Source: an uncultured Turicimonas sp. (GTDB lineage: Bacteria > Pseudomonadota > Gammaproteobacteria > Burkholderiales > Burkholderiaceae_F). Taken from it: 64,000 nt of DNA. Below, piece by piece: positions 22,952 to 32,224 of the stretch. How positions within the stretch are numbered: the first letter of the stretch is position 1; the number at the start of each line of letters is the position of its first letter. Position numbers and translations under genes: made by a program. The stretch is taken from positions 1 through 64,000 of the forward strand of contig CANTYJ010000080.1 of the NCBI GenBank assembly GCA_947854175.1, written 5' to 3'. The notes beneath the pieces are model-generated. The model saw only the letters and a list, made by a program, of their open reading frames with translations, searched no databases and was not told the origin of the DNA.

Positions 22952-24085
22952 CTAGAACTCGACAAATGGCAGTAACAATTCTTCTTCGTTAATAGTGAGA
23001 GGAGAGCCAACACTGACGCCGATAAGCCGGATCTTTTTTCCTTTGAGATCAACATGTTTTATCAACTCAATAGATTTTTTATAAATCTCTTCGGCTTCTT
23101 TTAAAGGATGATCGAACGTATGAGATCTGGTGCAGGTTTTAAAGTCTTGGAACCTTATTTTTAAGGTTAATGAAAAACCAATGAAGTTTTTTCTTTTCAG
23201 TCGTTCCACAAGTTTGTTTATGACCATGACTAAAGAATTTTTTAAGTCATGATAGTTGGTTAAATCATTGGAGAATGTGCATTCTGCGCTGATTTGTTTA
23301 CGTACACGATTAGTATTTACGACTCTGTTATCAATGCCTCTGGAATAGTTGTAATAACTCATTCCGGCTTTTCCAAAATTATCAACCAGAAACTTAAGAG
23401 GTTTTTCACGTAGATCTTTACCAGTATGGATTTCCAGCCGATGCATTTTTTGTTGGGTGACCGGACCTACACCCCAAATTTCTTTAACAGGTAACTTATC
23501 AATAAATGCCTGTGCTCTTGCAGGATGAATGACATACAAACCGTTTGGTTTTTTCCAGTCACTGGCTATTTTTGCTAAGAATTTGTTATACGAAACGCCG
23601 GCCGAAGCAACCAGACCAACCTCTTTTAAGATATCCGCTTTGATGCTACGTGCACACTCTACTCCGAACTGAAATCCTTTGAAGTTTTCAGTAACGTCTA
23701 AAAATGCTTCATCGATGGAAAGCGGTTCAATGAGATCGGTATAACGGCGAAAAATTTGATTGATTTGCTCAGATGCTTCGCGGTAAGCGTCCATTCTTCC
23801 CTTCACAAAAATGATTTGTGGACAGAGCTTCAAAGCACAAGAAGAAGGTTGTGCAGAGTGAACACCGAATTTTCTTGCTTCGTAACTGCATGAAGCAACA
23901 ACACCGCGTGCGCTATTTAATCCTACAGCGATTGGTAGCCCTACTAATTTTGGATTGTCTCTTTGCTCGACAGAAGCAAAGAAAGCATCTAAATCGACAT
24001 GCAGAATCTTTCTGAATTGCTTCCAAACTTCAGAGTAGGGATCAATCTTTCCGGCATAAGTAACGGATGGTACAACTTCAGACAT
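22952..24085 (-). CDS. dinB: DNA polymerase IV (Y family)
   Basis: Translesion DNA polymerase. The palm motifs HVDLDAFFASVEQRDNP and SIDEAFLD carry the catalytic acidic residues, and the thumb and little-finger regions follow, for 377 residues in total. About 25 residues precede the usual family N-terminus, and no internal Met offers a shorter start. The start codon is only 17 nt from the last CRISPR repeat, and no good Shine-Dalgarno lies between; the nearest GAGG is the repeat end itself. No LexA box is visible upstream. Transcription may therefore come through the CRISPR array. Confidence 0.93.
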   Translation of the reverse strand: MSEVVPSVTYAGKIDPYSEVWKQFRKILHVDLDAFFASVEQRDNPKLVGLPIAVGLNSARGVVASCSYEARKFGVHSAQPSSCALKLCPQIIFVKGRMDAYREASEQINQIFRRYTDLIEPLSIDEAFLDVTENFKGFQFGVECARSIKADILKEVGLVASAGVSYNKFLAKIASDWKKPNGLYVIHPARAQAFIDKLPVKEIWGVGPVTQQKMHRLEIHTGKDLREKPLKFLVDNFGKAGMSYYNYSRGIDNRVVNTNRVRKQISAECTFSNDLTNYHDLKNSLVMVINKLVERLKRKNFIGFSLTLKIRFQDFKTCTRSHTFDHPLKEAEEIYKKSIELIKHVDLKGKKIRLIGVSVGSPLTINEEELLLPFVEF

Positions 24086-24102
24086 CAGCGGTAATTAACG
24101 TT

Positions 24103-24564
24103 CCTCTAACCCCACATCAATTCTGGGCGCACGGTTCTTGGTCGATCCTCTAACCCCACATCAATTCTGGGTCATATTCGGGCAGACCGAACCTCTAACC
24201 CCACATCAATTCTGGGCGGAATCATGGAATCTGAGCCTCTAACCCCACATCAATTCTGGGTTCCTAACAGTCGGGCATCCTCTAACCCCACATCAATTCT
24301 GGGAAATGCCAGAATCTCTGACCTCTAACCCCACATCAATTCTGGGATCATCTATGCATTCCCTGCCTCTAACCCCACATCAATTCTGGGTCCAATCAAA
24401 ACTGCCAAACCTCTAACCCCACATCAATTCTGGGCTGCCCGAGAGAGCGGAACCTCTAACCCCACATCAATTCTGGGGGTATCTGCCCAGCTCGTCCTCT
24501 AACCCCACATCAATTCTGGGGAAAAGTTAAAGTCCGTAACCTCTAACCCCACATCAATTCTGGG
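24103..24564 (-). CRISPR. Type V-C CRISPR array: 11 identical 25-bp repeats, 10 short spacers
   Basis: Eleven perfect copies of a 25-bp repeat begin with CCTCTAACCCC and end with CAATTCTGGG on the + strand. First copy 24103-24127, last 24540-24564. Spacers in order are 19, 20, 19, 18, 18, 19, 19, 18, 18 and 19 nt, giving a period of only 43-45 bp. Each repeat can form a CCCA/TGGG stem with a 9-nt loop. No repeat is degenerate, so polarity cannot be read from repeat decay. The leader is placed on the right because the left flank is only 17 nt from dinB, while 182 nt of AT-rich DNA with a promoter-like element lies on the right. Short repeats and spacers are the known hallmark of type V-C/V-D systems. 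Confidence 0.95.
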
Positions 24565-24593
24565 AGAATAGCATATAACTATCTGAAAAACAA
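24565..24593 (-). promoter_or_regulatory. Putative extended -10 promoter abutting the CRISPR array
   Basis: On the minus strand TTGTTT is followed after 17 nt by TATTCT, preceded by TGC, which gives an extended -10 element. The -10 hexamer touches the first base of the leader-side repeat. Transcription would then start inside that repeat and run through the array toward dinB. The -35 match is weak, so this is tentative. Confidence 0.4.
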
Positions 24594-24746
24594 GATTTAC
24601 CCTTTAAAATGAATCTAAATAACCTCCATGAAAACTCAGTAGTTTCTCAGTAGGTTTTAGTTTTGGACATGATATAAAAGACCCTTTCACCGAGATTTGT
24701 TACTAAACGATTTTTGAATTTTTTAAATAAATCTTTTGCCGAGAAG
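24594..24746 (-). other. AT-rich leader region between cas12c and the array
   Basis: This stretch is very AT-rich and has no ORF. It is the only space beside the array large enough for a leader. No clear terminator follows cas12c, so cas12c transcripts could also enter the array. Confidence 0.5.
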
Positions 24747-27700
24747 CTAGTTTTTTTCTTTTTTCTTCAATTCTCCAAGAAATCTTCTTCCAATATTTAT
24801 AGCTGCATTCAAATCAGCATGGACTTCTCGATTATGCATAGAACAATCCTTAAATACGCAAAAATACCGACTTTGACTTGTATCTTTTGATTGAAGACTC
24901 CGAGGAGGGCGTCTCAAGTTCATCGCAATTGCTTTCTTCAAAGAACGTAAGGATATTGTCTGCTTTGGAATCGGTTGAATCCATGGAGCTCTTTCATTTC
25001 TACGCCTGGCTTCTTTTTGTGCTTCTGCAGAAGGTCTTTGATAAAGCTGTAATACTGATCCCATTAAATTTACGCAACCTTGGTCGTTTACTTCAAACGA
25101 AGTGATTTTGGCATCTTCTGCTTTTCTCAAAAGTTCATAGGCATTCCGGTTACATGTAGTACAGATTTTGCTTGTCCATTTCGCATTAACTGCAGCTCCC
25201 GGGAATATTTTTGCATCTCTAAAGAATCTTTGATCTATTGAGTAGATTTCCCCTTTTTTCTTTCCTTTTGCAAATTCTTCTGAGACTTCCTCAAGAAGAT
25301 TAGGCACCATCCATGAATTTGCACCATACCACCAGGATGTTCGTTCTGAGTTATGTGCGCCTATCATATCTGCAAGGAATCGGGCATTAACCATTTTATA
25401 GGCTGCACTAAGTTGCTTAGAACCACTAGCAAGATTTGAAACCTGGCGTTCAAGAACAGGAAAGGCCGAGAATTTTTTCATTAATCCTGCGATAGCTCCA
25501 CAAACGTCGCCCGCAACATTTTCTCTCAAAGAAAACATTGTAGAGTCGAACTGTTGATTGAATTTCTGTATTCCTTGGCCTCTATTCCGGTACTTTTTGA
25601 CTCCTCTAATTAGGCTCCTGATTGAAGGAATCGGGATAGTACCTGTTTTTATAGGCTTAGCTTCCGGATTACCTGCATCAGATAAGTTAAAGACAGCAAA
25701 ACCCAGGCCGGCTTCTCCCTGATCAATTCCTATAATTCTTGTAAAGGGAAAACCATCTTGCTTGGTATCTGCTGGTGAGGTCATAGGGAGAGCGATAGAC
25801 AAAGTCAGTCCTTGCCCTTCGAGGTAGATCTCATCCTTTTCATTTTTTTGATTAACCTCATGATCAACTAGTAAGGTTGCATCACCAATTGTTTCTTCCG
25901 GGTCTATGAGCAATCGGTCTAGTCTGCTTTTCATTGAGGAGGGGCCGATTAAACGGGCAATTGCGTTGGAAGGAAGTGTTTCAAAGGTCAATTTACCTTT
26001 ATCACTTCGAATCACATTAACAATTTCATGTTTATCAGACTGTTCGGATTTTGAAGATTTTACAGGTAATGCGTAACACCAATCGTGAGGGAGCTCTCTG
26101 AGAAGCATACGAAGGAAATTCGGTAATCCAGATTTGGAGTCAATTTTATTTTTCAAAAGAACGTTTTCAAAAGTCTTTTTTGAATCTATGAGAGTTGTGC
26201 TATCAGGTTGAAATGCTAATACCCCAGAATCGCGAATCTGTTGCCAGTATTTATTTTTAAAATAGCGACAAGGAATTTTCCAAGTATTCTTTTTTGGTCG
26301 GTAATGTATTGCACAATTACCTATCCACACAAACTTAGTCCGCAGAAAAAATCTATCTCTCCGTAATCTTATACCTGCACCATTGAGCTGGGTTGTATAA
26401 GTGTTGAAGACTTTACCAAGAATATTAGCTCCAACATAGTCATGTTTTAGTTGAAGTCGAAGGTCTTCAGAGACTGTCTCTCCGTCCCAACCTTCAGGAA
26501 ACCGCGGTAAAGCAAGCTCCGAAGGTATCGGAAATGTGATTGAAGAGAGCATAAAGCCATGGATAATTCCCCACAATAAATCAGCCGTTTGAGTTTCGAA
26601 AGAGTTTTCCTTAAATTTTTTGCTGAGGCTTTCAGACAAATTGAGGATTTCATTTATGGTTGTAGACGGATTATTAATAATCTGCTTGTTTAAAAGATAA
26701 GGAGCATGGCGTTTTGCTGCCATGGGGTGCACAAAAATTTGTCCCTTTTGGTTATGAAAATACTTATTTGCATCCTTAGAATTAACAAATATTTTTTTCC
26801 TCAGAAACCAGTTTCTAATCTCAATAGCCGCTTCATCATTATGGGTTTGTGCGAGTCTTGCTATTTTTTGTAATATGCAACGGATGGCTAATTCGGGAAG
26901 AGGAGTTGAGATGGTTGCTTCACCTTCTTTTTGCTCCTTATTTTGGTATTTGGAAAATTTAGTGATTAATGGTGCCAACGGATCAAAGTTGCTGCCTCGT
27001 TTTTGTATGTAGGCTTCAATGTCCTGATAATGTTTTTCCCGATTATCGCGTAATACTTTAGAAAGAGATAGGGCTTTTTCTAGCTCAATACGAGGCTTGG
27101 GAACTCCCCCGGACATTTTGTTAAGTTTAGGTAGATCTTTTAATTCCTTCCAAGTAAGAAGTTCCGATTCTGCCTGTTCTTTAAATTTTTTCCAGAAAGA
27201 ATCTTCTCCTTTTAGTCCCATCTCAATTGAATTCTCTATCTGATGTTTTATCGAGTTGAGACGGTTAACGATTTCTGAAAAGTTTCGAACATTGGTAACA
27301 TCACGTTCAATCGAATTTAGTGAACTTCCTCTTAGATTATCTAAGGACTCTTTTACTTGCGGATAAAGCTCGTTATAAAGAAATACGGCCTCAGAAGTTT
27401 CATCTTTTTTGCAGTCAGATATATCATATAGACTAATGACGGAGTCGTCTTTAGATATTGCTTCAAACTTAGGAACCTCCAAATGCTTCGGTAATTTAGT
27501 TAAAAGCTCATCTAATTCCTGCAGTCGTTTCACGTAATTGGTAATCCAACTGTTGATATGCCCACCAAAAGATGTTCTGAATTCATGGTATCCGATAGCC
27601 TTATCTTTGTTGAATAAAACGTCTTGTTCAGTAATTTGTTCAGCAAGACCTTTAACTCTTTCGACACACCACTGTGCATCCTCAGGTGCATCAAAAAGAG

Positions 27701-28652
27701 ACATTAACTCTTCAATAGAACTATGTTTGAAAAGAAGAAGGCCTTTGTTGAAAAGCCAACTGAGTCCGGCGGCTTTTTGTCCTGTCGTTAAATGATCCTT
27801 AACAAAATTTTCTTCATCAACCGAGCCATCCCTTTCGGGATAAGCCAAGATAGTTGCCACCGCTAAGTATGGTAACCATTCTTCCTGGATTTCCTTAGTA
27901 CGAACAGCCGACGGATCAAAAACAATTGAAGCCTTTTTTATTTCAGCATCCGGCTCTTTCAAAACTGGTAATTGATATGAGAATCCAAGAGATTTCAACT
28001 CGTTATTTATAATATTGACCGAGCTTTTTTTATCAGTGTTAATTTTGTTCCAACTTCCGAGTTGGAGAAATTCATTTGAAACGTTTGTGAAAAAACGGTT
28101 GATATTCTCTTCATTTGCTCCCTTTGGGAGAGAAGGGCATAAATCCTTTTGTAATTCTTTTTCGATATTTTCGGCTGTAAAGCTTGTATCTTTTCCTCCT
28201 CTGGCTCGCGGTGTCGTAGCAAGTCGTTTCAAAAGAGAGGACGGATTAAGTTTTGGTAAATCTACTCCAAAAATTTGCACAGCTTCTTTTTGAAAATCTT
28301 CAGACCGTAACAGCCTTTGATCTTTGAATAGTTGTGCTTCAGTTGACGTTCCAAAAATTCTAAATCCTGACAAAATCAAAGAAAATAGAAAATTTGATAA
28401 TGAACCTGCCGAAGTACCTTCAACAGTATCGTAAAGACTTTCAAATCTTTTGAAATCGCACCATGCATCTATTTTCTCATTCGCCGGTAGCTCAAGTTTA
28501 AATTTCATTGTAAGAGGACCGGGTTTTGCTGGTGTAGAGGCATATGCTGCAATCTTTTTCCGATAGTTTCTTAATTCTTGTCCTGATGGAAGATCGCGTA
28601 AAGGCATACTATGAGCGGTTGAATGCAAAAGATTTTGGAATGGTTTTGTCAT
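24747..28652 (-). CDS. cas12c: Cas12c-like type V-C CRISPR effector
   Basis: RNA-guided effector of about 1,301 residues. The C-terminal third holds a split RuvC domain: RuvC-I IIGIDQGEAG with Asp near 977, RuvC-II FPVLERQVSN with Glu near 1068, and RuvC-III HADLNAAINIG with Asp near 1280. A zinc-finger pair (CTTC near 1163 and CVFKDC near 1268) lies between II and III, as in TnpB-derived nucleases. The N-terminal two thirds resemble no other family I can name. The size, the Cas1-only partner and the very short repeat and spacer units support subtype V-C. Published Cas12c proteins process pre-crRNA and bind DNA with little or no cleavage; whether that holds here is unknown. The ATG at 28652 is preferred to a TTG at 28673; neither has a strong ribosome site. 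Confidence 0.88.
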   Translation of the reverse strand: MTKPFQNLLHSTAHSMPLRDLPSGQELRNYRKKIAAYASTPAKPGPLTMKFKLELPANEKIDAWCDFKRFESLYDTVEGTSAGSLSNFLFSLILSGFRIFGTSTEAQLFKDQRLLRSEDFQKEAVQIFGVDLPKLNPSSLLKRLATTPRARGGKDTSFTAENIEKELQKDLCPSLPKGANEENINRFFTNVSNEFLQLGSWNKINTDKKSSVNIINNELKSLGFSYQLPVLKEPDAEIKKASIVFDPSAVRTKEIQEEWLPYLAVATILAYPERDGSVDEENFVKDHLTTGQKAAGLSWLFNKGLLLFKHSSIEELMSLFDAPEDAQWCVERVKGLAEQITEQDVLFNKDKAIGYHEFRTSFGGHINSWITNYVKRLQELDELLTKLPKHLEVPKFEAISKDDSVISLYDISDCKKDETSEAVFLYNELYPQVKESLDNLRGSSLNSIERDVTNVRNFSEIVNRLNSIKHQIENSIEMGLKGEDSFWKKFKEQAESELLTWKELKDLPKLNKMSGGVPKPRIELEKALSLSKVLRDNREKHYQDIEAYIQKRGSNFDPLAPLITKFSKYQNKEQKEGEATISTPLPELAIRCILQKIARLAQTHNDEAAIEIRNWFLRKKIFVNSKDANKYFHNQKGQIFVHPMAAKRHAPYLLNKQIINNPSTTINEILNLSESLSKKFKENSFETQTADLLWGIIHGFMLSSITFPIPSELALPRFPEGWDGETVSEDLRLQLKHDYVGANILGKVFNTYTTQLNGAGIRLRRDRFFLRTKFVWIGNCAIHYRPKKNTWKIPCRYFKNKYWQQIRDSGVLAFQPDSTTLIDSKKTFENVLLKNKIDSKSGLPNFLRMLLRELPHDWCYALPVKSSKSEQSDKHEIVNVIRSDKGKLTFETLPSNAIARLIGPSSMKSRLDRLLIDPEETIGDATLLVDHEVNQKNEKDEIYLEGQGLTLSIALPMTSPADTKQDGFPFTRIIGIDQGEAGLGFAVFNLSDAGNPEAKPIKTGTIPIPSIRSLIRGVKKYRNRGQGIQKFNQQFDSTMFSLRENVAGDVCGAIAGLMKKFSAFPVLERQVSNLASGSKQLSAAYKMVNARFLADMIGAHNSERTSWWYGANSWMVPNLLEEVSEEFAKGKKKGEIYSIDQRFFRDAKIFPGAAVNAKWTSKICTTCNRNAYELLRKAEDAKITSFEVNDQGCVNLMGSVLQLYQRPSAEAQKEARRRNERAPWIQPIPKQTISLRSLKKAIAMNLRRPPRSLQSKDTSQSRYFCVFKDCSMHNREVHADLNAAINIGRRFLGELKKKEKN

Positions 28653-28673
28653 GAGAGTTTTTATAAGAACCAA

Positions 28674-28942
28674 ATTAGATCAATTTGTTAAGATTAACAC
28701 GACTTTGATATGTTCTCATGTAAAAATTGAGCTCTGACTCCCGTTTTTTCTTTTTTAATTTACATTGGGTCTTTCAGGTTCAATTTTTTCTGGCTATTTT
28801 TCTCTCAACCTCAAAAATGGACATAAATGCCCAACATCCTCTTATAAACAAGTATCGATTCCTACAAACAGTTGTGAAGTTTCGGAAGGTCTTCCCATAA
28901 GTGAGAATAAAAATTTTTACCTAAAGCACAAATTCATGTATT
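28674..28942. other. AT-rich intergenic DNA upstream of cas12c
   Basis: No ORF with good context is present here. It should carry the cas12c promoter and leader. TTGATC and TTAACA hexamers lie near 28681-28700 on the minus strand, but without a convincing -10 element. The right end passes into the GC-rich block that is treated separately as a candidate RNA. Confidence 0.4.
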
Positions 28943-29036
28943 ATTAGTTGCAATCCCCTTGCAGATTTTTGGATGCTTCTTCGTGAAACCTCCGTACCTC
29001 GATCTGGAAGGCGCCGCGGAGCCCGGTGCACATCAA
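28943..29036 (-). ncRNA. Candidate scoutRNA/tracr-like RNA between cas1 and cas12c
   Basis: This block is clearly more GC-rich than its flanks. On the minus strand it starts at the cas1 stop codon. It could fold with an outer stem GATGT (29034-29030) with GCATC (28976-28972), an inner stem CTCCG (29021-29017) with CGGAG (28994-28990), and a separate hairpin TGCAA-loop-TTGCA (28963-28949). Two short complementarities to the repeat exist. TTGATGTG (29036-29029) could pair with a repeat transcribed from the + strand. CTAAT (28947-28943) could pair with GTTAG of a repeat transcribed from the - strand. Type V-C and V-D systems are known to use a scoutRNA with only a few pairing bases. Exact ends are guesses. 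Confidence 0.35.
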
Positions 29037-30136
29037 ATGGCTCCTTTCCTTTTACCTGCATGAGTTTCACCCGGAAGTTTGTAGCCTGTCTTGATGGGGC
29101 GGCCTCCCTTCTTTTCTCCTTCCACCGGAATGACTAATCGTAGACTTTCATTTAAAAGATACGCTCTAAGAGCTAACACTATCCCGTGTAATAAATTCTT
29201 TCGTCTGACATATTGTCTGGTTGCTGGCACATAAACAGTTTCGTCTAGCTTTTCTTTCATAATTGCTAAAGTTGCTGCTACCAATCTTTTCTCATTCATG
29301 GTGTCTTCTTTCTGCTTCAGCCAGGCTTGAGATGCAGCTTCTTCAATAATGTATCGATATGGTTCCATTAAGTCATAAACCAAAGATGGATAAGAAGCCG
29401 GTTCATGTAAATAACCATGCTGAGGAGAAAATTTATGAAAAAGAATCCATCTCAAAAGGATTCCATATAAAAATTTACTTCCGGCATCAAGAGCAGTTGT
29501 TATTGGAGATTCTGCACGGCGTGTTTCTTCTTCCAGACCAAGTTGCTCGAACCAGGCTTGCCAATACCTAAAAGACTCGCAGGCTTCAAGTTGACGAACT
29601 TCTTTTACAGAATTATAGGAAGCAAGAGTGCGGTACGTTGAACGGCTAATAGCTATGTGGGATTGAAATTTGTCAAAACGATGGCGTATTAGAGTTTTTG
29701 CAACATATGCTTTTTTCTGGGAATGTTCTCTGACGAGAATTTGTCTCGTAAGAATGTCAACGTCATCAGATAAAGGAGCAGGATAAAAAATATAAGGCGA
29801 AGGAATATTCCGACGATGAATCATACAAGGAATTTTTTTGGAAGCTAAAGCATCAAGAAACTCCAAAGGTAGTTCACCGGTTGCACCATAAAACATAATA
29901 AAGTCAATTTTGTCGAGCTCGAGGATTAGGCTACCGCCGTTATATTCAATAATCCAAAATTTTGTCCGGTATTTTTTCTTGACACCTTGGAAATACGGGA
30001 GCCAAAGGCTAACCTTGCTATTTCTGGAGGTTGATTTCCAAGTCCATATAAAATCTTCATGTTGTGCCTCTTCAAGTGTTCTTGGAATCGTTTCCTCAGA
30101 CTTTTTTTGATTTGCATTAGGTGATGAGGGTTCCAT
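29033..30136 (-). CDS. cas1: Cas1 integrase, type V-C, without Cas2
   Basis: CRISPR adaptation integrase of 367 residues. Conserved active-site residues are visible in the family order: Glu184 in QLEACESFRYW, His244 in GYLHEPASYPS, and Asp255 and Glu258 in VYDLMEP. An N-terminal beta domain covers about residues 40-110 and the alpha-helical catalytic domain the rest; the C-terminus is basic. No cas2 or cas4 gene is found anywhere in the window. This matches the described V-C mini-integrase, in which Cas1 alone integrates 17-19 bp fragments. The ATG at 30136 with AAGAGA 9 nt upstream is preferred to a TTG at 30145. A good promoter lies 57-84 nt upstream. Confidence 0.93.
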   Translation of the reverse strand: MEPSSPNANQKKSEETIPRTLEEAQHEDFIWTWKSTSRNSKVSLWLPYFQGVKKKYRTKFWIIEYNGGSLILELDKIDFIMFYGATGELPLEFLDALASKKIPCMIHRRNIPSPYIFYPAPLSDDVDILTRQILVREHSQKKAYVAKTLIRHRFDKFQSHIAISRSTYRTLASYNSVKEVRQLEACESFRYWQAWFEQLGLEEETRRAESPITTALDAGSKFLYGILLRWILFHKFSPQHGYLHEPASYPSLVYDLMEPYRYIIEEAASQAWLKQKEDTMNEKRLVAATLAIMKEKLDETVYVPATRQYVRRKNLLHGIVLALRAYLLNESLRLVIPVEGEKKGGRPIKTGYKLPGETHAGKRKGAI

Positions 30137-30192
30137 CGGTGACAATCTCTTATGTGCTGATTTTAAAAGAGTAGAGAAAAGAAACTAACTTA

Positions 30193-30220
30193 ATTTTAAC
30201 TAGTTGCTTTTATCTTTCAA
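30193..30220 (-). promoter_or_regulatory. Sigma-70-like promoter of cas1
   Basis: On the minus strand TTGAAA (5 of 6 to consensus) is followed after 16 nt by TAAAAT (5 of 6). It is the likely start of the cas1-cas12c transcript. Confidence 0.5.
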
Positions 30221-30352
30221 CAAAAAAGATAAACATAGAGCTTATAGCCAGAAAAGTTTGAATATAGCGACGTATGTGAAAATATGATGGTGGCTTTTAT
30301 TTATTTCTTTGAGTAAAACTGAAGTTTTTCCGCTAAGGTCTCCTCTAGTAAC

Positions 30353-30553
30353 ATGTCTGAAGAATTTTTTGTACGTGACCAAATGAATGAGGCCTACGGC
30401 AAGTTCAATTGAGATTTCAAATTAGATGAGATTTCGCACAAAGAGGATGTGATTCCAGAATTTTTTATGCATGTTCGATTCGAAAGAAAAAATATAGAAA
30501 TCAATCGTATTGAATCTTACAGAATGAAAAAGAGAGAAGAGTTAGAAGGTTGA
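30353..30553 (+). pseudogene. Small interrupted ORF beside tRNA-Leu
   Basis: An ATG at 30353 opens a frame of 19 codons ending in TGA. The same frame then runs on for 46 further codons without a stop, to a TGA at 30551-30553. Joined, the product would be about 66 residues: charged, with a basic C-terminal helix (YRMKKREELEG). This looks like a short gene broken by one TGG-to-TGA change, or a decayed fragment. I recognise no family. It lies between the divergent cas1 promoter and the 3' end of tRNA-Leu, a common place for integrated elements. Chance cannot be excluded at this length. Confidence 0.3.
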
Positions 30554-30555
30554 AG

Positions 30556-30641
30556 TGGTGGCCCGAACCGGACTTGAACCGGTACAGCTTATCGCCGAGG
30601 GATTTTAAGTCCCTTGTGTCTACCAATTTCACCATCGGGCC
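30556..30641 (-). tRNA. tRNA-Leu (anticodon UAA)
   Basis: The minus strand folds as a class II tRNA. The acceptor pairs GGCCCGA with TCGGGCC and has an encoded CCA at 30558-30556. The D arm contains AAATTGGTAGAC, and the anticodon stem GGGA/TCCC surrounds loop CTTAAAA, which gives anticodon TAA. There is a long variable arm, and the T arm is ACCGG-TTCAAGT-CCGGT. It decodes UUA. A consensus-like promoter lies just upstream. Its 3' end abuts the CRISPR-side flank, where a small broken ORF ends 3 nt away. Confidence 0.96.
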
Positions 30642-30658
30642 ACACATCAGAGAGACGC

Positions 30659-30687
30659 ATTCTACATACTTTTAATCAAGTTGGCAA
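30659..30687 (-). promoter_or_regulatory. Promoter of tRNA-Leu
   Basis: On the minus strand TTGCCA and TAGAAT, each 5 of 6 to consensus, are separated by 17 nt. They place the start about 10 nt before the tRNA. Confidence 0.65.
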
Positions 30688-30824
30688 ATCAAAAAATAAG
30701 ACCTGTCAAAAAATTTCTTTTTAGCTCCAAAAGATCAATTTATTCGTAAATTAAATTGGTAAAAATGCTCATTCAGAAAATTAGTATTAAAAAATAGCGA
30801 CAGAAGAAGGAATCAGTCCTAATA

Positions 30825-30853
30825 TTGAGTATGTAAATCATTAAGAGAATAAT
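30825..30853 (+). promoter_or_regulatory. Putative promoter of the ATP-grasp/alpha-E operon
   Basis: TTGAGT and AATAAT are separated by 17 nt and lie about 55 nt upstream of the ATP-grasp start codon. A small hairpin (TGCAT-AAAA-ATGCA) and a strong AAGGAGG ribosome site follow in the leader. Confidence 0.5.
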
Positions 30854-30907
30854 GAATTTACTCCTTAGCTGCATAAAAATGCACTTAAGACTTAAGGAGG
30901 TATAAAT

Positions 30908-32224
30908 ATGGAATCCTTAGTTGCCAATGTTTCGGCAATTAATCGTCTTCTAGCCCGTTACGGCGTTAAATTTGGAATTTATAAAAACAATGAGTTCATA
31001 GAGCAATTGTTTCCTTTTGACCCGATCCCAAGAGTTATAGACGGTGAAGAATTCGCTGTTTTGGAAAAAGGCCTAAAACAACGTGTAGATGCACTCAACG
31101 CTTTTCTTAAAGATATCTATACAAAAAAACAAATTATCAAGGATGGAGTTATTCCTGAAAGTTTTGTTTTTTCATCGAGCGGATATCTCCCGGCTTGCGA
31201 TAATTTTGTTCCGCCGGGTGAAGTTTTCTCACATATTTCCGGAATTGATTTGGTTCAGGCTGACAGCGGGCAGTGGTACATTCTTGAAGATAACCTGAGG
31301 ATCCCTTCAGGTGCTTCTTATCCTTTAATTGCCCGCAAGCTCTCAAGAAGAGCAAGTCCGGAGACTTTCAAACACAATAAAGTCGATAACAATGCCGATT
31401 ACGGGCGCCTTTTGGCTGAAAGTATGAATAGCGTTAACCGTGGCGGATTAAACGTCATACTGACACCCGGAAGATACAACTCAGCTTTCTTTGAACATAG
31501 TTATCTGGCTGAAGTAACAGGTTTTCCGCTAGTCATGCCAAATGATCTGTTTGTAAGAAATAACAAACTTTATATTCGTACCCAGCAGGGTGCAGAAGCT
31601 CAGGTCGGTGCAATTTACCGCAGAATCTCCGATGAATATCTTGATCCTTTGACATTCAATCCTGACTCTCTGATTGGAGTGCCGGGAATTATGAGCGCAT
31701 ACCTGGCCGGTAATCTGGCTATCGTCAATGCACCGGGAAATGGGGTCGCTGATGATAAAGGGACTTACTATTTTGTTCCTAAGATGGTTTCGTACTATCT
31801 CAATGAAGAGCCAATCCTCAATAATGCACCTACTTATTTGCCTTTGTATCCCGAAGACTTGGAATACTGTTTGGATAATATCCAGAATCTGGTTATCAAA
31901 GATGTGGCAGAAGCAGGCGGTTATGGAGTACTGTTCGGCCGGGATATGGACGAAAAAACATTAGATGACTGGAGACAGAAAATTCAACTTGAACCGAGAA
32001 GATTTATTCTTCAGGAAGTGATCAACTTTATCGATCTTCCAATCCTGGAAGGAGATACAACGGTTCCCAGAAAGGCGGATTTAAGAGCATATGTCGTCTC
32101 GTCAGCTGATAAAACTGAAGTTTGGCATTGCGGTTTGACACGCTTTTCACGTGTACCTGATTCATTCGTAGTTAATTCATCACAAGGCGGAGGCTTTAAA
32201 GACACATGGGTTATATCTCGATAG
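30908..32224 (+). CDS. Circularly permuted ATP-grasp type 2 protein (DUF404/DUF407)
   Basis: A 438-residue ATP-dependent carboxylate-amine ligase-like protein. The N-terminal GVKFGIYKNN and PFDPIPRVI segments, the EDNLRIPSGASY motif and the KDVAEAGGYGVLFG nucleotide-binding stretch match the circularly permuted ATP-grasp family (DUF404/407). The family is always associated with alpha-E and transglutaminase-like proteins, as here, and is predicted to form peptide-like bonds. Substrate unknown. The ATG has a near-perfect AAGGAGG site, suggesting strong translation. Its end overlaps the alpha-E gene by 19 nt, so the two are translationally coupled. Confidence 0.9.
   Translation: MESLVANVSAINRLLARYGVKFGIYKNNEFIEQLFPFDPIPRVIDGEEFAVLEKGLKQRVDALNAFLKDIYTKKQIIKDGVIPESFVFSSSGYLPACDNFVPPGEVFSHISGIDLVQADSGQWYILEDNLRIPSGASYPLIARKLSRRASPETFKHNKVDNNADYGRLLAESMNSVNRGGLNVILTPGRYNSAFFEHSYLAEVTGFPLVMPNDLFVRNNKLYIRTQQGAEAQVGAIYRRISDEYLDPLTFNPDSLIGVPGIMSAYLAGNLAIVNAPGNGVADDKGTYYFVPKMVSYYLNEEPILNNAPTYLPLYPEDLEYCLDNIQNLVIKDVAEAGGYGVLFGRDMDEKTLDDWRQKIQLEPRRFILQEVINFIDLPILEGDTTVPRKADLRAYVVSSADKTEVWHCGLTRFSRVPDSFVVNSSQGGGFKDTWVISR

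What the first reader, a model, noticed from the sequence alone, without database searches (positions are those of the whole stretch)
28943..29036. Candidate scoutRNA in the cas1-cas12c gap
A GC-rich block begins at the cas1 stop and stands out from the AT-rich locus. It can form nested stems (29034-29030 with 28976-28972; 29021-29017 with 28994-28990) and a separate 5-bp hairpin with a GGGGA loop. It contains an 8-nt stretch shared with the repeat (TTGATGTG, 29036-29029) and a 5-nt stretch (CTAAT) able to pair with GTTAG of the repeat. Known: Cas12c needs a scoutRNA with short complementarity for pre-crRNA processing. An 8-nt match in this space has a modest chance of being random.
Basis: partly seen in the sequence, partly recalled or inferred. 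Interest (0 to 1): 0.72.

Follow-up and report, generated by a model that had tools for sequence, protein, structure and literature searches.

The report
Guide-partner RNA of a Cas12c CRISPR system
The gap between cas1 and cas12c encodes the small helper RNA (tracrRNA, or scoutRNA) that Cas12c should need to use its CRISPR guides, but on the opposite strand from the one proposed; its folding and its pairing with the CRISPR repeat are preserved by matched mutations in related bacteria.

Summary
The window holds a type V-C CRISPR-Cas locus: cas12c, cas1 and 11 repeats of 25 nt with 18-20-nt spacers. The PLUS strand at 28952-29053, antisense to the cas genes, carries every element of the Cas12c2 guide-RNA scaffold known from cryo-EM, in the same order: R:AR-1, stem 1, 3-nt linker, stem 2 (GGA...UCC), GUA linker, dock CCUC (pairs with repeat GAGG), stem 1', stem 3 and R:AR-3 (ACAUCAA pairs with repeat UUGAUGU). 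The '8 nt shared with the repeat' is really this third anti-repeat, read on the wrong strand. A covariance model built from seven relatives without this window finds 28953-29052 (+) at 56.8 bits, E about 1e-17; the next-best place in the genome scores 12.4 bits. Within the bacterial family, model hits and Cas12c occur in the same 5 of 67 genomes. I found the element antisense at the cas1/cas12c junction in all 11 loci examined. One feature I could not find described: a covarying 3' helix pairing the stem-3 loop with sequence just after the third anti-repeat (H-type pseudoknot or terminator hairpin). Transcription was not tested.

The parts
28952..29053 (+). Cas12c tracrRNA (scoutRNA) gene, core RNA of about 102 nt, antisense to the cas1-cas12c operon
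   Evidence: Hold-out covariance model R1: 56.8 bits, E 1e-17; best hit in own genome, next-best 12.4 bits
28916..28944 (+). Predicted promoter TTTACC-17-TATTAT; -10 box ends 7 nt before the RNA
   Evidence: promoter-like sites upstream of the element summed over 11 loci exceed all 500 shuffles
28952..28957 (+). R:AR-1, AAUCCC pairs with repeat GGGGUU (-11..-6)
28958..28967 (+). Stem 1, 5' strand (CUUGCAGAUU)
   Evidence: predicted in the MFE fold
28968..28970 (+). 3-nt linker UUU
   Evidence: Same length as the Cas12c2 linker
28971..28993 (+). Stem 2 hairpin, invariant GGA...UCC base
28994..29000 (+). Linker GUA plus dock CCUC; dock pairs with repeat GAGG (-4..-1), R:AR-2
   Evidence: dock changes to CCUU where the repeat ends AAGG
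29001..29010 (+). Stem 1, 3' strand
29011..29029 (+). Stem 3 (29011-29015 with 29025-29029)
   Evidence: covarying
29030..29036 (+). R:AR-3, ACAUCAA pairs with repeat UUGAUGU (-18..-12); overlaps the antisense of the cas1 stop codon (29033-29035)
29018..29044 (+). 3' helix: GGAGCC 29018-29023 with GGCUCC 29039-29044, followed by UUUCCUUUU 29045-29053; pseudoknot with stem 3 or terminator hairpin
29033..30145 (-). cas1
   Evidence: Pfam Cas_Cas1 2.5e-15; PADLOC Cas1
24747..28673 (-). cas12c (true start probably ATG 28652 or 28607)
   Evidence: PADLOC Cas12c 914 bits; Cas12c1 PDB 7VYX 696 bits
24103..24564 (-). CRISPR array: 11 identical 25-nt repeats CCCAGAATTGATGTGGGGTTAGAGG (crRNA strand), spacers 18-20 nt

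Best explanation
The plus strand at 28952-29053 encodes the tracrRNA (scoutRNA) of this type V-C system. It is predicted to be transcribed from its own sigma-70-type promoter (28916-28944), convergently with cas1 and antisense to the cas1/cas12c junction. It folds into stem 1, stem 2 and stem 3 and joins the 18-nt crRNA handle UUGAUGUGGGGUUAGAGG through three short duplexes: AR1 with -11..-6, dock CCUC with -4..-1, and AR3 with -18..-12. Cas12c should bind this X-junction and cut the pre-crRNA just upstream of the next repeat in its RuvC site. A 3' helix joins the stem-3 loop to the sequence after AR3. It probably closes the RNA as a pseudoknot clamp on stem 3 and the AR3 duplex and, where a U-tract follows (as here), also ends transcription. 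Shown here by sequence: position, strand, conservation, covariation with the repeat, and co-occurrence with Cas12c. Inferred: transcription, Cas12c binding, processing and the role of the 3' helix.
For: Cas12c and cas1 identified; 11 identical 25-nt repeats. The element layout and linker lengths match the Cas12c2 cryo-EM scaffold: linkers UUU and GUA, stem 2 GGA...UCC, 4-nt dock immediately before the 10-nt stem-1 3' strand. In eight loci the dock pairs 4/4 with the own repeat in 8/8 (CCUC with GAGG, CCUU with AAGG); AR3 pairs 7/7 in 7/8; AR1 pairs 5-6 bp in 8/8, with compensatory changes. Each tracrRNA fits its own repeat at least as well as any other; of 100,000 re-pairings 8 reach the observed total, about what the identity and the interchangeable L032/L033 pair would give. 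Structure counts: 87.2% of cells paired against 73.5% in shuffles and 41-52% with slid partners, 18 pairs with changes on both sides against 8.6. The hold-out covariance model finds the window element at E 1e-17 on the plus strand. Model hits and Cas12c occur in the same 5 of 67 family genomes. Promoter-like sites upstream of the RNA in 11 loci score above 500/500 shuffles. The joint architecture occurs in 2 of 20,000 shuffled gaps.
Against: No transcript data. The single-sequence fold of the plus strand is not unusually stable (z = -0.77). AR1 in the window is shifted by one position relative to relatives. The free RNA's MFE fold forms the 3' hairpin instead of stem 3, so stem 3 and the 3' helix may be alternatives rather than coexist. 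Stem 1 has one mismatch here and up to two in relatives.
Confidence: 0.95

Rival explanations
1. One reading: a scoutRNA transcribed from the minus strand (same direction as cas genes) with nested stems 29034-29030/28976-28972 and 29021-29017/28994-28990 and short repeat complementarity through CTAAT.
For: The named stems and words exist in the window. A minus-strand read-through transcript of the cas1-cas12c operon would cover the region.
Against: The stems are not conserved in six relatives. The minus strand folds no better than shuffles (z +0.42). The minus strand between cas12c and cas1 contains no CCUC dock complementary to the repeat's GAGG end (read). The plus-strand elements covary with the repeat.
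Confidence: 0.02
2. The conserved block is only an antisense regulator or bidirectional terminator of the cas1-cas12c operon, not a guide component.
For: It lies antisense at the cas1 3' end in 11/11 loci. The 3' helix plus U-tract resembles an intrinsic terminator in about half of the group-1 loci.
Against: A regulator or terminator needs no covariation with the CRISPR repeat at three separate sites, nor linkers like those contacted by Cas12c2. A dual role is not excluded.
Confidence: 0.02
3. The 3' helix (GGAGCC/GGCUCC here) is only the transcription terminator hairpin of the tracrRNA and not part of the folded guide complex. (This rival concerns the 3' helix only; it is compatible with the tracrRNA identification.)
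For: It is the MFE fold of the free RNA. A U-tract follows in W, L030, L031 and L038. It lies outside the 71-nt tracrRNA used for the Cas12c2 structure.
Against: L032, L036, L048 and L049-L051 keep the helix without a convincing U-tract. Its 5' arm always sits between the stem-3 strands with L1 of 1-3 nt, as expected of an H-type pseudoknot.
Confidence: 0.45

Closest known systems
Cas12c2 tracrRNA/scoutRNA (Kurihara et al. 2022, PMC9522604, PDB 7V93/7V94; first named scoutRNA by Harrington et al. 2020, not readable here)
   Same: Order of elements, 3-nt linkers (second one GUA), GGA...UCC stem 2, 4-nt dock pairing with the last four repeat nucleotides, 10-nt stem-1 strands, three repeat:anti-repeat duplexes
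   Different: Different sequence; stem 3 longer (about 19 nt against 15 nt); here a 3' helix beyond AR3 is seen, whereas the published sgRNA stops at AR3 and replaces the tail by a GAAA loop
Cas12c1 system of Parasutterella muris (PDB 7VYX; Zhang et al. 2022, named in PMC11246509, paper itself not held)
   Same: Closest solved effector (696 bits; the Parasutterella locus L030 scores 920 bits); by its name related to the Parasutterella locus found here
   Different: The published Cas12c1 tracrRNA could not be compared here, so whether its 3' helix was described is unknown
Cas12d (type V-D) scoutRNA
   Same: Short complementarity to the repeat, known from the literature
   Different: The effector here is Cas12c by 914 bits against 46 bits for Cas12d

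Membership tests
Type V-C CRISPR-Cas | Cas12c effector | tested here: met
   PADLOC Cas12c 914 bits; Cas12c1 E 9e-208
Type V-C CRISPR-Cas | cas1 next to cas12c, no cas2 or cas4 seen between or beside them | tested here: met
   ORF list and Pfam/PADLOC; only cas1 found. That V-C often has cas1 alone is from general knowledge
Type V-C CRISPR-Cas | Short spacers of about 17-20 nt between repeats | tested here: met
   10 spacers of 18-20 nt; Cas12c2 processes 17-22-nt spacers
Type V-C CRISPR-Cas | Intact RuvC triad and CXXC/CXXXXC zinc motif | tested here: met
   D973, E1064, D1276, C1160/C1163 and C1261/C1266 present and invariant in five aligned Cas12c; equivalence to Cas12c2 D928/E1014/D1201 is by motif, inferred
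Cas12c tracrRNA (scoutRNA) | Dock of 3-5 nt pairing with the 3' end of the repeat | tested here: met
   CCUC with GAGG; covaries with repeats in 8/8 loci
Cas12c tracrRNA (scoutRNA) | X-junction elements: R:AR-1, R:AR-3, stems 1-3, 3-nt linkers | tested here: met
Cas12c tracrRNA (scoutRNA) | Occurs with Cas12c | tested here: met
   Same 5 of 67 family genomes carry both
Cas12c tracrRNA (scoutRNA) | Transcribed and bound by Cas12c; required for pre-crRNA processing | not testable with these tools
   Needs RNA-seq or biochemistry
Rfam RNA families | Match to a described RNA family | tested here: not met
   Only the tRNA matched in 23500-31000; Rfam release 15 gave no match to this RNA

The most novel reading that the evidence does not exclude
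Cas12c tracrRNAs carry an undescribed, family-wide H-type pseudoknot: the loop of stem 3 pairs with the tail just after the third anti-repeat, closing stem 3 and the repeat:AR3 duplex at their tips. The published Cas12c2 sgRNA lacks this tail, which could explain why the tips of stems 3 and 4 were disordered in its cryo-EM map.
Probability: 0.4. Interest if true: 0.55.

Novelty: new member of a known kind. Interest (0 to 1): 0.45.

Why it matters
It gives the exact guide-RNA parts of an uncharacterised Cas12c from a relative of Sutterella, on the correct strand, so the system can be reconstituted. It gives comparative support for the X-junction that, in the papers I could read, rested on one structure. 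It also points to a conserved 3' helix that the published Cas12c2 single-guide design leaves out and that can be tested directly.

Tried and rejected
Minus-strand stems and the CTAAT contact: not conserved. A degenerate repeat or mini-array in the gap that could autoregulate cas genes: no repeat copy outside the array with up to 3 mismatches over its last 18 nt in the whole genome, and none convincing in the window. Viral, phage and plasmid collections: no Cas12c relative. Weak Cas12c-profile hits in the phylum sample: partial matches of 16-25 bits and E 1e-6 to 1e-3, not Cas12c. Single-sequence folding energy is uninformative for this RNA. Papers on the scoutRNA discovery, Cas12c1 structure and Yan et al. 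2019 were not held. Group-2 loci L049-L051 are too similar to each other for their 3' helix to be significant on its own.

Full report
WHAT IS THERE. The window carries cas12c on the minus strand (24747-28673; PADLOC Cas12c 914 bits; PDB Cas12c1 696 bits), cas1 on the minus strand (29033-30145), and an array of 11 identical 25-nt repeats (24103-24564) with 18-20-nt spacers. In crRNA orientation the repeat is CCCAGAATTGATGTGGGGTTAGAGG. No Rfam family other than a tRNA matches the region, and the block is single-copy in the genome.

CHECK OF THE OBSERVATION. The minus strand folds no better than shuffles, and the three minus-strand stems fall apart in relatives.

THE PLUS STRAND. The cryo-EM structure of Cas12c2 (PMC9522604) gives a precise template: AR1 pairing with crRNA -11..-8; a 10-nt stem 1; a 3-nt linker; stem 2; a linker G-U-A; a dock C-x-U-C pairing with -4..-1; the stem-1 3' strand; stem 3; and AR3 pairing with -18..-12. 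The plus strand at 28952-29036 reads AAUCCC | CUUGCAGAUU | UUU | GGA...UCC | GUA | CCUC | GAUCUGGAAG | GCGCC...GGUGC | ACAUCAA, which fits this template piece by piece. This joint pattern arose in 2 of 20,000 shuffles of the gap.

RELATIVES. Whole-genome searches found Cas12c in four other genomes of the same bacterial family. The species-genome scan named these as Sutterella (two), Mesosutterella and Parasutterella, and added a Succinivibrionaceae and a Mailhella genome. Four more came from the family of the Succinivibrionaceae genome. In all 11 loci an equivalent element lies at the cas1/cas12c junction on the strand opposite the cas genes. In the eight closer loci (Cas12c of the four aligned first is 37-41% identical to this one) the dock is CCUC where the repeat ends GAGG and CCUU where it ends AAGG; AR3 follows the repeat (ACAUCAA, CUAUCAA, CUGUCAC); AR1 shows compensatory changes. 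Each tracrRNA pairs with its own repeat at least as well as with any other; 8 of 100,000 random re-pairings reach the observed total. Structure counts give 18 pairs with changes on both sides (8.6 expected from shuffles) and 87% paired cells, against 41-52% when partners are slid.

HOLD-OUT TEST. A covariance model was built from seven relatives without the window. It finds window 28953-29052 (+) with 56.8 bits, E 1e-17. In the whole host genome the next match has 12.4 bits and E 2.3. Among 67 genomes of the bacterial family the model hits exactly the five that carry Cas12c; four of these five contributed to the model, the window's genome did not.

TRANSCRIPTION. A sigma-70-like site TTTACC-17-TATTAT ends 7 nt before the RNA. 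Summed over 11 loci, promoter-like sites at this place score above all 500 shuffles; the opposite strand is not significant (32 of 500). This is consensus evidence only; no RNA data were available.

THE 3' HELIX. Directly after AR3 all eight closer loci have an arm that pairs 6-7 bp with the loop of stem 3: GGAGCC/GGCUCC here; GCAGGG/CCCUGC, GGGGGC/GCCCCC, GGGGGU/ACCCCC, GCCCGGC/GCCGGGC and GGGAUAG/CUAUCCC elsewhere. Five of its six pairs change on both sides. The spacing (L1 1-3 nt, S2 5-7 bp, L2 0-3 nt, L3 8-11 nt) is that of an H-type pseudoknot with AR3 in loop 3. It can also be an intrinsic terminator: the free RNA prefers it over stem 3, and a U-tract follows in about half of the loci. 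The published Cas12c2 sgRNA stops at AR3. I could not find this helix described in the papers I could read; the Cas12c1 structure paper was not held.

MECHANISM. [quoted passage not shown] The RuvC and zinc-finger residues are intact here. Whether this enzyme cuts DNA, as reported for Cas12c1, or only binds it, as for Cas12c2, cannot be decided from sequence.

VERDICT. The one feature that may be new is the conserved 3' helix.

Noticed in passing
window 24103-24564 versus L030, L031, L032, L033, L038, L048, L049, L051: Here the array lies downstream of cas12c in the same direction as the cas genes; in eight relatives with an array it lies upstream of cas1 and runs divergently from it. The gap between the tracrRNA and cas12c is also about 250 nt longer here.
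   Followed up: partly
L048 8786-10708: cas12c of genome G494 is interrupted near its C-terminal part by a roughly 2-kb insertion carrying a DDE transposase (Pfam DDE_Tnp_1).
   Followed up: partly
window 24085-30641: The cas locus sits between dinB and a tRNA gene (30559-30641). In a genome of the same genus without Cas12c the two flanks are about 38 kb apart on one contig, suggesting a variable island beside the tRNA.
   Followed up: partly
L033 10190-11817: The array is split in two blocks about 1.1 kb apart, with a degenerate repeat beside at least the first block.
   Followed up: no
L031 8600-8670 and similar loci: In relatives the tracrRNA promoter overlaps the start region of cas12c on the other strand (the tracrRNA begins about 20-70 nt from the cas12c start), so tracrRNA and cas mRNA are antisense; mutual regulation is possible but untested.
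   Followed up: partly
L052 6870-7379: Genome G551, from the same family as the Mailhella genome, has a short open frame (326 aa) matching only the C-terminal part of Cas12c (142 bits).
   Followed up: no
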